The notes under the pieces were generated by a model. The model saw only the letters and a list, made by a program, of their open reading frames with translations, ran no database searches and was not told the origin of the DNA. A stretch of DNA of 10,662 nt from assembly GCF_000611645.1 (NCBI RefSeq), contig NW_014012110.1, positions 1 to 10,662 on the forward strand. The letters are read 5' to 3'. Origin of the DNA: Monoraphidium neglectum (Eukaryota > Chlorophyta > Chlorophyceae > Sphaeropleales > Selenastraceae). The translations under genes were made by a program, and so were the position numbers. The number at the start of each line of letters is the position of its first letter. Positions within the stretch are counted from its first letter, which is position 1. Positions 3,758-9,786 of this stretch are shown piece by piece.

Positions 3758-4100
3758 TGCTGCGAACAGGTGGCAGAACGGCTGGAAGAAGCTCGGGGAG
3801 GTGAGCAATGCTAGCACGTGGGTGAGCGACCAAGAGTGAGGTACTCCCGAACAAGCGGGGGTCGACTTGCAATATGACAGCACCACGGTGAAAGGTAGGA
3901 GATCACTGAAAAGTAGGGGGCGGACGAGCAGTAGGAGGCAGCGGGGCGCGGGGTGGTGCGGCAAAAATCATTTCATCCCAAGGGTGGTGATATACCATAC
4001 ACAAGCAGCACCAGAGCACGTCGTAGCATTTGATTGGTCCCATTTTGGCGGCGGCTTCTGCAGCGCACCCGCGCGCCCGCCGCGCCAGGCGCGCGGCGCG
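3758..4100. promoter_or_regulatory. Divergent promoter region shared by XPT1-like gene and GPATCH11
   Basis: The two start codons lie 343 nt apart and point away from each other, so both promoters and both 5' UTRs must fit here. Candidate elements: a G-box core CACGTG (3815-3820); a short inverted repeat TGGT-GATAT-ACCA (3985-3997) holding a weak TATA-like core; an ATTGG inverted CCAAT box (4033-4037); and an E2F-like TTTGGCGG (4044-4051), about 50 nt before the GPATCH11 start. The arrangement is visible in the sequence; the function of each motif is inferred from plant and algal promoters. Confidence 0.6.
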
Positions 4101-5491
4101 ATGGCCGCGCGCGGCGGCGGGGGCCAGCACCCCGGCGCGCGCCGCGCAGCAGGCAGCGGCACCAACGACACCGAGCAGGGCGCAGCGGCGCCGGCGCCGC
4201 GCGTCGATTTGAATGCGTCAGATCACGCTGACGAGGACGAGCCAGACCCCCTAGACCGGCTTTTAGATGAGTACTCCGCCCAGGCGACCGCCGAGGCCGC
4301 CGCCTCCCTCTCGCGCCAACAGCAGCGCGAGCGGCGCGCCGCGCCGCGGCCCGCGGCGGCGCGGCGGGAGGAGGCGCTGGCGGCGCCGCTGGCGGCGAGC
4401 AACAAGGGGTTCGCTCTGATGGCCAAGATGGGATTCGAACCTGGGCGGGGGCTCGGCAGAGATAAGCAGGTGCGCGACGCCCATTTTAATGTTGTGGTTC
4501 GATGTCGCAACTAGCAGGCATGCGCACGTGCGGCCCTGTTAGGTCGCGTTCGGCGATGCAACGCCCGTGCCCGCGCCCCGCCCTGCGCCTCGCGCCCGCA
4601 GGGGCGGTCGGACCCGCTGCCTCTCGTGCTCAAGAGCGGCCGCGCGGGGCTGGGGATCGAGGAATCGAAGCAGCAGCGCAAGCGCGAGGCGGAGCGGCGC
4701 GCGCTAGAGGCGGGTAAGGCGACGCCGCCTGTGCAAGCAGCGGCACGGGCGGGCGCGGGCGCGGGCGCGGCTCAGGGGCCGTGCACGGGCGGTCGAGGAT
4801 GCGCGCGGGCTGGGGCACGGGCGCGGAAAGCACCGCCTCGCCACTTGGCCCAGTGCATGTGCAATCACAGCCTGTGAAGAACACTCCCTGCATGCGTCGA
4901 GCATTGCCTTCCCCACTTGCCACGCCACGCGCCCACGCAGCCGCCAAGCGTCAGCGCCACGTCAGCGCCATGCAGAGCGGCTTCAAGGGCGCCCGGGCCG
5001 ACGCCTACGCGGCCCGCAAGCTGCGCCACGCCGCCGCGCGCGCCGCGGCGGCGTGCGCGTCGCTCGACGAGCGCGCGGGTGTGGCGGGAAACCCGCTGAT
5101 CGACGGCGTCGGCGGCGGCGGCGCCGGCGGGGGCGCAGGGAGCGGTGGCGCCGCGGGCGCGGCGGAGGACGAGGAGGGAGGGGAATGGGAGCTGCTGCCC
5201 GGCGCTGGCTGCTGCGGCGTCGGCGGCGGCGGCCGGGCGGCGCGGCTTGAGCGCGGGGAGGAGGCGGCGGCAGAGGGGGAGGCGGGGGCGGGGGTTGGGG
5301 ATGGAGACGGCACAGCGGCGGTGACGCTCGGTGATCTGAGCGTGGATGAGGTGAGGGCGCGGCTGGCCGCGTTGGTGGACTACCTGCGGTCGCGCTACTT
5401 CTACTGTGTTTTCTGCGGGGCTGAGTATGAGGACGAGGAGGACCTGGCGAGAAGCTGCCCGGGGCCGGGGGAGGAGGACCACGATGACTGA
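4101..5491 (+). CDS. GPATCH11: G-patch domain protein GPATCH11-like, three exons, 343 aa
   Basis: Exons are 4101-4469, 4602-4713 and 4941-5491 (TGA). Introns of 132 and 227 nt are GT..AG and all phases agree. The N-terminus (1-99) is low complexity and acidic, then Arg/Ala-rich. The G-patch begins at SNKGFALMAKMGFEPGRGLG (100-119) and continues across intron 1 into GRSDPLPLVLKSGRAGLG (124-141). A charged helical stretch follows, then SGFKGARADAY, a Gly-rich spacer, and the C-terminal DUF4187 module with YCVFCGAEYEDEEDL and SCPGPGEEDHD. This G-patch plus DUF4187 order is specific to GPATCH11 (CCDC75). G-patch proteins usually bind and activate DEAH-box RNA helicases in nuclear RNA processing; the partner here is not shown. 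C316, C319, C333 and H341 could form a zinc site. The start at 4101 is uncertain because the frame is open upstream to an ATG at 3867. Confidence 0.9.
4747..4765 (+). other. Predicted G-quadruplex in GPATCH11 intron 2
   Basis: Four GGG tracts (4747-4749, 4751-4753, 4757-4759, 4763-4765) are separated by loops of 1, 3 and 3 nt on the transcribed-sense strand, meeting the usual G4 pattern. They lie about 35 nt after the intron 2 donor (4714). Folding in vivo is not shown. Confidence 0.55.
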
Positions 5492-6190
5492 CGGTGACGT
5501 CACACGCGAGATGACTGCATGGTCTGGGCGGTTGCTGAGCTGGCAGGGACCCCGCCTCTAACCTAATGTCGCGAGGCCTCAACCGGCTCGCATGTATTTT
5601 CGTTGGTAGTCTTCTTGTGTTGTCGCCAACACCGCATGGGCAATTGTTCGTTTGCAATTCAATTGGCAATTTATTCTTGCTCGCCCGTCCGCGCCTGCGG
5701 CGGCCGGCGGGCGAAGCGGCGCTGCAATCGATGCGCCTCCCACCCAGCCGGGGCGGTCCTGAATCAGGGGGACGGGGACCGGCCTGCGCAGCAGCATCCC
5801 CCCAGATTGACTGGCCTGCTGCAACTCCTGTGCATGTTGCGGCTGCCAGCCACGCGCTGCAGCCGCACCGCCCCGAATCGCTCTGCTTTCCCCTTGTAAA
5901 CAGCTACAAGAAATTATGGGCGACAGTCAAAGCGTTACTCCGGTTGCAAAGAGCGTCCTTGCATGTTCGACGCGGCGTCGCAGGCGCGCGCATCAGAAGT
6001 CGCACAGAAAACCTTGTGACAAATTCACAGTTGCACAGCTGCGGTGCCGGCGGCTGTATGAAGCCGCACCAGCATGCTTCCGCTGCATCCAAACCGCCGC
6101 ATTGCCGGCGCAGCAAGACCAGTCGACGCCCGCAAGGCAGGCAGCACCTGACATCTCTCACCCCGCCGCCGATATCACCAGATCACTAGA
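5492..6190. other. Convergent 3' intergenic region (GPATCH11 and REX1-B)
   Basis: 699 nt lie between the stop codons of two genes that converge. The region should hold both 3' UTRs. A relatively AT-rich patch (about 5590-5690) has three GCAATT copies (5640, 5654, 5666). A TGACGTCA palindrome (5495-5502) directly follows the GPATCH11 stop. I find no coding region and no TGTAA on the minus strand for REX1-B. Confidence 0.6.
5895..5899 (+). terminator. Candidate polyadenylation signal TGTAA for GPATCH11
   Basis: TGTAA is the usual chlorophyte polyadenylation signal. This copy on the plus strand lies about 400 nt downstream of the GPATCH11 stop and is the only clear one I see in the convergent intergenic region. 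The use of this site is inferred. Confidence 0.5.
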
Positions 6191-7758
6191 TCACGCCATG
6201 ACCTCATCGCCCACCCCTCCGCGCCTCAGATCGTCGGCCGCCTCCCTGACCTCCTCCAGGGCCGCGTTGATCTCCTCTATCGCGCCATCCAATCCGCGCG
6301 CCGCCTCGCGCGTCGCGGCGGCGACATCGGCAGCCAATGGCGCTGCGATGCCGTCAGCGCCGTACAGCACGCCCCCAGGCCCCGTCCCGCCGCCGCCGCC
6401 GCTGGGCGCCGCAGCGCACCCCTCGTCGCCGGCCGCCGCGCCGGCCGCGGGCGCGGGCGCGTGGACGGCGGGCTCCTGGTCGCCGGCGTGCGACTTGGCC
6501 GCGTCGGCGCCGCCGGCGGCCGGTGCAACCGGGGCGCCATTCTCATGCGCGTGCGCGTGGCCGCCGTGGGCGCCGCAGCACGCGCCGCCGCCGGCCCCCG
6601 CCGCCGCCTCCACCGCGATCCCCTGCAGCTGCCGCGCGAGCGCCTCGCCCGGGCCCTCTGGGCCGCCGCCGCGCCGCGGGGCGCCGCCGGCCGCGGCGAG
6701 GGCCTGGGGGGTGGAGGCGTCCCTCAGAGCCTGCCAGCTGACGGTCAGCCTGCGCCGGCGGTTTGACGTGTGTGATGTGGAGGTGTGCATATGCATGTGC
6801 ATGTGGTTAAATGTGCGGATAAATGTGTGAATGGAGAGGTGGCCGGCGGCTGGTTGGTGTGTAGGGGTGCGCGCTCGTGGCCGGGTGTGCGGACTAGATC
6901 AAAGGGGCGGAGGCGGCCAGGGGTCCCGGGCAGGCGGCAGACACAGGGGGGGGTGGGGTCAAAATTGCGGCCCGCGGCCCGCAGGGTCGCGAAAGCCAGG
7001 GCCCGCGCTGCCGCCCCGCCTCGCCTCGCCCCGCAACTGCAAGGCGGGCTAAAATCAGGATTCCAAACGCACGCGGCCGCACAAACCACGAACGCGGCCG
7101 CACAAACTATGGAAAGAAACAGATGGAAAGGCGCGCACCTGAGCTTGTCAGCCTCAGCATTCTGGACGCGCCTCAGCAGCGCGGCCAGGTCGGGCCGCCC
7201 CGCGCCGCCGCCGCCCCTCGGCGCCGCCAGGGCCGCCTCCAGCGCGCGCACCTGCAGCGCAGGGTGACGCGGCGCCGCCGGGGGCGGGGGCCGGGGAGGT
7301 TGGGGTTGCAGGGGTGCCGTGCGGCGCGCGTGCGGGGGGAGCACGATTAATGTCGTTGCCTGGCTGTTTTCTCAAATGTTCTGAAAGGCCTCAGGGTTGC
7401 AGCGCGACGGCAGCCGCCCAGGATGAGCGGGCAAGAACCCCGGCGGCCACAGGGGACGCGGCACGGGCCCTAGGGCGCGCCGCGCCGCGTCGCGCTGCCT
7501 GGCGCCCCAAGCCCTCACCCCCGCCCGACCCGCAAGCCCCTGCCCCAGCGCCCCCTCGCCGCGCGCACCCACCTGCTGCGACACCGCCCCAAACTCGAGA
7601 GTCACTTCCTGAATGCTCCTCTTGTACCGCCCCTCGTCCCTGTCCCGCAGGAACCCCCGGAACGCCGCCTGGAAGCTGCCGTACAGCTGCGCGCGCCGCT
7701 CCTGAGCCGCGAGGAACTCAGACAGCAGCGGCAGCGGCTCTGGGCCTGCCGGCGCCAT
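6191..7758 (-). CDS. REX1B: REX1-B DNA repair protein, three exons, 285 aa
   Basis: Exons in transcript order: 7758-7573, 7251-7139 and 6749-6191 (858 nt, GT..AG introns, phases agree). Residues 1-115 match the REX1-B family (DNA_repr_REX1B; human REX1BD): helix LLSEFLAAQERRAQLYGSF (11-29), YKRSIQEVTLEFGAVSQQ (45-62) and, across two introns, GRPDLAALLRRVQNAEADKLRLT with WQALRDA. A long Ala/Gly/Pro linker follows, with a Cys/His cluster (C157, C158, H161, H164, H166, H168), then a C-terminal amphipathic helix (about 235-280). In Chlamydomonas, REX1 is needed for excision of UV dimers and is expressed from one transcript with REX1-S. Here the start is the first ATG after the upstream TFB5 stop, in a modest context (C at -3, G at +4). 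Homology covers mainly the first 115 residues; the biochemical activity of the family is not known to me. Confidence 0.88.
7071..7112. repeat. Two-copy 21-bp tandem repeat in REX1-B intron 2
   Basis: ACGCGGCCGCACAAAC occurs at 7071-7086 and 7092-7107, with a 21-nt period and diverging spacer bases. It lies about 30 nt after the intron 2 donor (7138, minus strand). Each copy holds a GCGGCCGC palindrome. It is probably a simple slippage duplication. Confidence 0.75.
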
Positions 7759-7884
7759 ATGGCGGGCGCCGCGCTCCGCCTTTCCTGCCGCAGGGGACGC
7801 CTTCGCGCCGGCACGCGTGCTCGGCCGCGCCGCGGCCGGGTGGCGGTGCGAGGGGCACTCGAGCGTCGAAGCGGGGGTCGAAGT

Positions 7885-8868
7885 TCACTTGCCGGCGCGG
7901 CCGCGGCCGCCGCCCTCCTCGCCCTTGTCGGCCGGCGGCTGGTACACGTTTTTATCGTTGAACTCCTGGACCTGCAACGGGCGGGGATCGAATCCGGGTG
8001 CCGAGGCGGCGTCGGAACGGAAACGGCGCCGGCTCGGCGCACCGAGAGCGCTGGGGTTGGCACAAGCGTGCGCGTGAGAGCAGGCAGCGCGAGGAACTAG
8101 CCCATATGCTCCGTTGCTGCTGCAGACGCCGCTGCAGCTATAAGTGGTGCGTGGTGATGCGCACACACGCGCGCACGCGCAGGCCCGCCTGCAGCTGGCC
8201 CGCGCTCCCGCGGCCGTGGCTGGCGGGCGAGTGCTGACAGTTGTTGCGGCCTCGGCCGCGCGCACGGCGTGGAGCGCGGCTGCGTTCCTTGGGCGCACCT
8301 TCTCCCTCACAAAATCCACCTTGTCTGCTTTCACAAATAAGTGGGTGTCGTCCAGCACAGCGATGATGAACTTGCCCCTGGCACACGGGGGGTTGTGGGG
8401 GTGTGGGCAGCAGGTTGGGCAGTGCTGTGGGGAGGCTAGGAGGGGCGGCGCGGGAGCCGCCAGGCGGCGCAAGTGGTGGGGCAGGCGGACCTCCAGGGAT
8501 GGCCTGTGCGGCGGGGCCGGCCAGGAATATGCGGCGCTGGGTTTCAGGCGCGCCGCATACGGCCGCATGGCCGTGCATGGGGATAGGGCGGTGGCGCCGT
8601 GGCGGCAGCGGATGCCGCGGGCGCTCGCGCAGAGGCGCGCGCGGCCGCTCACTGGGCAGGCGCCTTGTTGTTCTCGTGGATTAGAACCTCCTTTGTGGGC
8701 ACGTCCCTGCGCGGCCGGCGCGCGGCACTCCTGTTGGCAGCGTGCTCAGCACAACCGAGCAGTGCAAGCGGCGCCGGTGACTGGCGTCGCAGGCAGCAGG
8801 GACTTCTCGAGCCAAACAGCGCCTCTAGCTCACGTTGCTATCAGCACGCCGTTGGAGGCGTAAACCAT
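7885..8868 (-). CDS. TFB5: TFIIH subunit TFB5 / REX1-S (GTF2H5, TTDA homologue), four exons, 84 aa
   Basis: Exons in transcript order: 8868-8834, 8706-8653, 8377-8299 and 7971-7885 (TGA); 255 nt with agreeing phases, introns of 127, 275 and 327 nt. TFB5 is the smallest TFIIH subunit; it stabilises the p52/Tfb2 part of the core and is needed for nucleotide excision repair in the nucleus. Family features: N-terminal MVYASNGVLIATD; the strand-loop core GKFIIAVLDDTHLFV (31-45), the most conserved segment; then VDFVREKVQEFNDKNVY (50-66), matching the C-terminal helix. A basic, Gly-rich tail (68-84) makes it about 12 residues longer than the usual 70-72. The start at 8868 is set by homology, although the frame stays open upstream to an ATG at 9102. 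It heads a two-gene unit with REX1-B, as in Chlamydomonas. Confidence 0.93.
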
Positions 8869-9000
8869 TTCCAAGATCCGCGCGAGGTGAAGACACGGAG
8901 TGATCTGTGCACCTTTTTGGGGGGAAGCCTTGGAATGTTTTGGCAAATCAATGAAAGCAAGCTGCGCTTGATGAGCTTTTTTGGCGCCGGGCACAACGCA
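8869..9000 (-). promoter_or_regulatory. Likely proximal promoter / 5' UTR of TFB5-REX1B
   Basis: This lies directly upstream of the TFB5 start. A perfect E2F-type site TTTGGCGC (8980-8987, plus-strand reading, after a run of T) lies about 112 nt before the ATG. No clear TATA box is seen. The transcription start is unknown, and a 5' UTR intron cannot be excluded. Confidence 0.45.
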
Positions 9001-9786
9001 CTTCTGCTGTACCGCTGTTGGCCGATGCTCGCGGCGGCTCTCGCCCAGTGTGGCGGCGGTGTGGACTGGCCAAGAGGCCATGGGCGGCTGTATGCCCCGC
9101 AACGCGCACCAGGGGCCGCCGAGGGCCAGCCCTCAGCCAACCTCCAATTCTGTCGCAGGTGGATGCTCACTGACACCCCAGGGACGTGCCATATCATTGA
9201 CCCGCGGCACACACACCGTCTCCGTCGTCTGCTCCTGCCCCCAACCCCATCCACACACGCCCAGGGCCGCACGCCGCCCCCTCACATCGCAGCCCCCGCT
9301 CTCACCCAGCAACAAATCGCGGCGTCGCGCGAAGCCGCCTTTGCCGTGTCGTGCTCTTGCCGCAGGGTCCTTCAATTCATGTTTCCACTGCTTTGGCAGC
9401 CGCGGCATTTACATCTGATCTCTGGCCAGCGGCCACTCGTCAATGGTTTGGGCCCCCAACCGCCATGGTTTGGGTTCCCCAAAAAAGGTACAAGCTGAGC
9501 AGCAACAACGCAAATACAGTGCCTCCAAACTCGAGAGCAGTGGTTGAGAGAGCGCTTCCCCTCTCCTCTCCAGTGCTACGCGCCCCACCCCAGCCCACCG
9601 CCGGCACGTGGCGGCGAGCCCGCTGCCCGGGCGGCGGTGTGTATGCAGCCGCATTGAACTTTGTCGGCATCCAATCCCATCGCATGCGGGCCGGAAAAAA
9701 AACCGGGGCCTCTGGTGGGTGTCTCGGGGAGAGGGGGGGCGCGTGGAGGGTTCGAAACCGATTGGCCCGTCGCAGCCGTCGAGCAA

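What the first reader, a model, noticed from the sequence alone, without database searches (positions are those of the whole stretch)
7756..8868. AUG desert linking TFB5 to REX1-B in a dicistronic message
Seen in sequence: after the TFB5 initiator, the 255-nt spliced CDS and the 126-nt spacer contain no ATG in any frame, including across all three splice junctions, until the REX1-B start at 7758. TFB5 has no internal Met codon. In GC-rich DNA of this length a few ATGs would be expected by chance. Established: the Chlamydomonas REX1 locus makes REX1-S and REX1-B from one mRNA, and green-algal polycistrons have been linked to leaky scanning with few AUGs in the first ORF. Inference: the lack of AUGs is selected so that ribosomes missing the TFB5 start reach REX1-B, coupling two repair factors. 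The TFB5 start context is not obviously weak (G at -3, G at +4), so reinitiation is also possible.
Basis: partly seen in the sequence, partly recalled or inferred. Interest (0 to 1): 0.85.

Follow-up and report, generated by a model that had tools for sequence, protein, structure and literature searches.

The report
Two-gene algal repair message without AUGs
In a green alga two DNA-repair genes lie head to tail and very probably share one messenger RNA whose first part has no spare start signals, which fits a way of reading two-gene messages that is already published for green algae.

Summary
On the minus strand, spliced TFB5 (REX1-S, 255 nt) plus the 126-nt spacer before REX1-B hold one ATG, the TFB5 start, in any frame and across all three junctions. 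Both proteins match their Pfam families; REX1-B is identical to MNEG_8148 of Monoraphidium neglectum. For one locus the desert is only mildly unusual: 2.7-3.5 ATGs expected, P(0) about 0.03, or 0.01-0.02 from own-genome rates. The spacer alone is unremarkable (P(0) 0.6-0.7), and REX1-B itself opens with 274 nt free of ATG. The mechanism is in print: Duenas et al. 2025 (PMC11892635) report weak ORF1 starts, AUG depletion before ORF2 and in vivo evidence for leaky scanning, and list REX1S_REX1B as a bicistron. Two results fit less well: TFB5 has G at -3 and G at +4 while REX1-B has C at -3, and the collinear TOM22/SDHAF3-like pair of the same genome has four internal ATGs in ORF1. Verdict: one more orthologue of a known bicistron; leaky scanning likely, selection on this interval plausible but unproven, no transcript data seen.

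The parts
8869..9078 (-). stretch upstream of the TFB5 start without ATG (candidate leader; transcription start unknown)
   Evidence: nearest upstream ATG lies 213 nt before the TFB5 ATG
8834..8868 (-). TFB5 (REX1-S) exon 1 with start codon; context TTGGAA ATG G (G at -3, G at +4)
8653..8706 (-). TFB5 exon 2 (54 nt, left out of the public protein MNEG_8149)
   Evidence: the encoded segment is conserved in P0001 and P0011
8299..8377 (-). TFB5 exon 3, the one TFB5 match of the genome search
7885..7971 (-). TFB5 exon 4 with stop codon TGA
   Evidence: whole protein PF06331, 76.3 bits
7759..7884 (-). inter-ORF spacer, 126 nt, 79% G+C, no ATG
7573..7758 (-). REX1-B exon 1 with start codon; context GCCAT ATG G (C at -3, G at +4)
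7139..7251 (-). REX1-B exon 2
6191..6749 (-). REX1-B exon 3 with stop codon
   Evidence: whole protein PF14966, 81.8 bits, identical to P0007/MNEG_8148

Best explanation
This is the Monoraphidium neglectum copy of the green-algal REX1 bicistron. TFB5 (REX1-S, the small TFIIH subunit) is ORF1 and REX1-B is ORF2 of one spliced, capped mRNA. Scanning 43S complexes mostly start at TFB5; a fraction pass its start and, meeting no other AUG in 378 nt, start at REX1-B. Shown here: gene order, strand, gene models, absence of other AUGs, collinearity of both genes in a second Monoraphidium record. Inferred from the orthologous, published loci: the single mRNA and leaky scanning. Inferred and weak: that selection has kept this interval AUG-free.
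For: Gene models and the AUG-free interval; Pfam matches; 126-nt spacer and 255-nt ORF1 lie in the range of published green-algal bicistrons (inter-ORF medians 183 and 40 nt, ORF1 medians 357 and 291 nt); REX1S_REX1B is a named bicistron in Chlamydomonas and Auxenochlorella; class-wide AUG depletion before ORF2 (observed/expected medians 0.49 and 0.48), weak ORF1 starts and reporter mutations that favour leaky scanning over reinitiation. P0001 and P0008 (M. minutum TFB5 and REX1-B) each report a contig of 204,410 nt. P0011 (TFB5) and P0009 (REX1-B) each report 3 contigs, longest 1925 nt, and both read through the window's intron positions without inserts, which suggests one cDNA-like contig with both ORFs; that contig's DNA was not seen. 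P0001 and P0011, the two other full-length close TFB5 proteins, have no internal Met.
Against: TFB5 has the favoured G at -3 and G at +4, REX1-B has C at -3, the reverse of the class trend. P(0) is only 0.01-0.03, and 0.13 for out-of-frame ATGs given the protein. REX1-B starts with a comparable 274-nt AUG-free run that leaky scanning does not explain. 29 of 113 other TFB5 proteins, those with a name being yeasts, also lack internal Met in the aligned core. TOM22 in the same genome has four internal ATGs. No transcript, TSS or ribosome data for this species were seen; only 34.6 Mb of a genome put at about 68 Mb is held.
Confidence: 0.75

Rival explanations
1. Same bicistronic mRNA, but REX1-B is made mainly by reinitiation after TFB5 termination.
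For: TFB5 start has G at -3 and G at +4, so few ribosomes may leak; the spacer of 126 nt leaves room to rescan; an AUG-poor interval near the stop also helps reinitiation (argument in section 13 of PMC11892635).
Against: 84 codons is long for reinitiation (the paper cites a negative relation between uORF length and reinitiation). In A. protothecoides, weakening or removing the ORF1 start raised ORF2 output.
Confidence: 0.13
2. Two separate or partly separate mRNAs; REX1-B has its own promoter in the spacer or in TFB5 intron 3, and the AUG-free interval is chance in G+C-rich coding DNA.
For: P(0) of 0.01-0.03 is not extreme for a feature picked out after reading; intron 3 (8298-7972) could hold a promoter; the public annotation lists two genes, MNEG_8148 and MNEG_8149.
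Against: Orthologous pairs are bicistronic in Chlamydomonas and Auxenochlorella. No TGTAA (green-algal poly(A) signal, recalled) lies between the ORFs; this is weak, since none follows REX1-B on that strand within the next 740 nt either (only TGTAG at 5908). The likely single 1925-nt contig with both ORFs in a relative.
Confidence: 0.12
3. The message is bicistronic and read by leaky scanning, but the absence of AUGs is a by-product of protein sequence and G+C-rich codons, not of selection on scanning.
For: Given the protein and this genome's codon usage, 13% of recodings have no ATG; no Cys or Trp in TFB5, so frame-2 ATGs can hardly arise; yeast TFB5 often lacks Met; TOM22 is not AUG-free. 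This rival concerns selection only and overlaps the best explanation.
Against: Class-wide depletion in two algae; zero of the two other full-length close relatives has an internal Met, though these are not independent.
Confidence: 0.45

Closest known systems
REX1S_REX1B bicistron of Chlamydomonas reinhardtii and Auxenochlorella protothecoides (Cenkci et al. 2003, recalled and cited in PMC11892635; Duenas et al. 2025)
   Same: Same two protein families in the same order on one strand, short spacer.
   Different: Spacer 126 nt here against 14 nt in A. protothecoides. One mRNA is demonstrated there, not here.
Green-algal bicistrons read by leaky scanning (36 loci in C. reinhardtii, 43 in A. protothecoides; PMC11892635)
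   Same: Short ORF1, short spacer, AUG-poor interval before ORF2.
   Different: ORF1 start context is near consensus at -3 and +4 and the ORF2 start lacks a purine at -3.
TOM22_SDHAF3 bicistron (PMC11892635) and its collinear pair in this genome (L079)
   Same: Two short mitochondrial ORFs, same strand, 334 nt apart.
   Different: ORF1 has four internal ATGs here, while the A. protothecoides TOM22 ORF and spacer have none.

Membership tests
REX1-S / Tfb5 (PF06331) | Full-length Tfb5 profile match | tested here: met
   76.3 bits against a cut-off of 23.5, profile 1-66 of 67
REX1-B (PF14966) | DNA_repr_REX1B profile match | tested here: met
   81.8 bits against 24, profile 2-93 of 94
Green-algal bicistronic loci | Two collinear ORFs on one strand with a short inter-ORF gap | tested here: met
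   126 nt, same strand
Green-algal bicistronic loci | Arrangement conserved in other chlorophytes | tested here: met
   Published for C. reinhardtii and A. protothecoides; M. minutum proteins report contigs of the same length, 204,410 nt, adjacency not read
Green-algal bicistronic loci | Single mRNA carrying both ORFs | not testable with these tools
   No transcript reads for this species; a relative's 1925-nt contig is suggestive only
Green-algal bicistronic loci | Depletion of AUG before ORF2 | tested here: met
   0 observed, 2.7-3.5 expected, P0 about 0.03; weak for one locus
Leaky-scanning bicistron | ORF1 start weaker than ORF2 start | tested here: not met
   By the -3 purine and +4 G rule quoted, TFB5 has G/G and REX1-B has C/G; a full species-specific score was not computed. 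A trend of the class, not shared by every member
Leaky-scanning bicistron | Translation of both ORFs and inverse response to ORF1 start strength | not testable with these tools
   needs ribosome profiling and reporters

The most novel reading that the evidence does not exclude
The REX1 bicistron of this lineage works with reversed start strengths: a near-consensus TFB5 start and a poorer REX1-B start, so that an entirely AUG-free interval (or a very short leader, or reinitiation) and not a weak first start is what lets REX1-B be made; different bicistrons of one alga would then rest on different mixes of leakiness and AUG purging, as the contrast with the AUG-bearing TOM22 pair hints.
Probability: 0.12. 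Interest if true: 0.45.

Novelty: new member of a known kind. Interest (0 to 1): 0.22.

Why it matters
It adds a third genus to the green algae in which the TFB5/REX1-B pair is seen in bicistron-like order (for the two published ones) and gives a locus with unusually clean separation of two variables, start context and internal AUGs. If the start contexts are as they look, it would test whether AUG purging alone can support ORF2 translation when ORF1 has a good start. It does not open a new mechanism.

Tried and rejected
Comparative DNA of other REX1 loci: the decisive test, not reached. The three protein searches returned few algae: the TFB5 single-sequence search 6 hits of 7 candidates, REX1-B 4 hits, and the profile search listed 120 of 585 hits, mostly vertebrates and yeasts, with no land plant named in the list. 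So Met counts in green-algal TFB5 rest on P0001 and P0011 (full length) and five partial or odd models. Counting was done in the part aligned to the window protein only.

Other published bicistrons in this genome: CDC26 gave one low-complexity match that I judged false after reading the frames, and one below cut-off; FAM32A gave one match below cut-off, not examined further; TOM22 with a LYR-family gene downstream was found. A possible spacer intron there (GT at 1731, AG near 1922 of L079) would remove the five spacer ATGs but not the four in the TOM22 ORF.

Start-context matrix for this species: histone, LSM and tubulin loci were fetched but I made no matrix from so few starts; contexts were judged by the published -3/+4 rule only. 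The histone and LSM loci were not analysed.

Poly(A) signal test: TGTAA is absent from the spacer, but also absent just after REX1-B, so it does not discriminate.

Coding control: 23 of 30 fetched kinase segments (82 matches in all), 24 of 30 RRM (31 matches) and 10 of 12 tubulin (21 matches) were used; the 15 dropped ones were those where my script did not find an open frame at the expected place. Chunks were made by joining segments.

Papers: PMC11892635 abstract, sections 5, 6, 7, 8, 13 and passages; PMC5144980, PMC3890519 and PMC8226300 passages only. Gallaher 2021 and Cenkci 2003 are not held and were not read. I made no search aimed at a printed account of REX1 in Monoraphidium beyond the listings.

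Full report
What is there. The window is contig C1274 of a 34.6-Mb assembly. Its REX1-B protein is identical over 285 aa to MNEG_8148 of Monoraphidium neglectum, a Selenastraceae green alga with a G+C content of 64.7% and an estimated 68-Mb genome (passages of PMC3890519). On the minus strand lie TFB5 in four exons (8868-8834, 8706-8653, 8377-8299, 7971-7885; 84 aa) and, 126 nt after its stop, REX1-B in three exons (7758-7573, 7251-7139, 6749-6191). Pfam gives Tfb5 (76.3 bits) and DNA_repr_REX1B (81.8 bits). One match to each family was found in the held assembly.

The AUG desert. In the spliced TFB5 CDS plus spacer plus REX1-B start codon (384 nt), ATG occurs only at the two starts. The next ATG upstream is 213 nt before the TFB5 start. 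Composition and shuffles expect 2.7-3.5 ATGs after the initiator, P(0) about 0.03. Split by cause: no internal Met in 83 codons P 0.26 at the Met rate of the control segments, no out-of-frame ATG given the protein and this genome's codon usage P 0.13, spacer P 0.62-0.73. In the control, 2 of 49 joined 252-nt chunks of kinase, RRM and tubulin coding sequence had none, and none of the 15 single segments long enough. Against a special meaning: REX1-B has 7 internal ATGs against 4.6 expected, but none in its first 274 nt after the start, where leaky scanning asks for nothing.

Relatives. M. minutum TFB5 and REX1-B (P0001, P0008) each report a 204,410-nt contig, so they are probably on one. An unnamed source gives TFB5 P0011 and REX1-B P0009, each with 3 contigs, longest 1925 nt; both proteins run without inserts through the window's intron positions, as a spliced two-ORF transcript would. 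I could not read that contig. P0001 and P0011 lack internal Met. Among 113 other listed TFB5 proteins 29 also lack it in the aligned core; those with names are yeasts, while 62 have two. Lack of Met is therefore not a mark of bicistrons by itself.

What is known. Duenas et al. 2025 (PMC11892635; abstract, sections 5-8 and 13 and passages) curated 36 bicistrons in C. reinhardtii and 43 in A. protothecoides, found weaker ORF1 start contexts and AUG depletion before ORF2, and showed with reporters that ORF2 output falls when the ORF1 start is strengthened or an AUG is added and rises when the ORF1 start is weakened or removed. They name REX1S_REX1B as bicistronic, with a 14-nt spacer in A. protothecoides.

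Where this locus departs. By the -3 purine/+4 G rule, TFB5 has G and G, REX1-B has C and G: the reverse of the class trend. And in the same genome a TOM22 gene (PF04281) is followed 334 nt later by a LYR-family gene (PF13233), matching the published TOM22_SDHAF3 bicistron. Its ORF1 has four internal ATGs, one of them GAGATGG, while the A. protothecoides TOM22 and spacer have none. Whether that pair is bicistronic in M. neglectum is not known. So AUG purging is not a fixed trait of such pairs in this genome.

Judgement. One bicistronic mRNA: about 0.88. Leaky scanning as main route: about 0.75. Selection against AUGs in this interval: about even. These odds are judgements, not computed. The finding is correct, well seen, and an orthologue of a locus already in print.

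Noticed in passing
window 8653-8706 (-): The public M. neglectum TFB5 protein (MNEG_8149, P0002, 66 aa) lacks the 18 residues of exon 2, which M. minutum P0001 and P0011 keep: probably an annotation error, or an in-frame skipped isoform.
   Followed up: partly
window about 4100-5488 (+): Convergent gene with a G-patch domain and a C-terminal DUF4187, likely a GPATCH11 orthologue (name recalled); TGTAA on its strand at 5895.
   Followed up: partly
window about 3757-1005 (-): Exons with a phosphoribosyltransferase-like look by eye (ILIVDEVDDSRKT); four open pieces gave no Pfam match at 0.01.
   Followed up: partly
L079 1501-1692 and 2027-2437: TOM22 followed by a LYR-family gene, the collinear counterpart of a published bicistron, with four ATGs inside ORF1, five in the gap, and ATGs 37, 43 and 63 nt upstream.
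   Followed up: yes
window about 2030-2270: Long (TG)n tracts on the minus strand inside an apparent intron.
   Followed up: no
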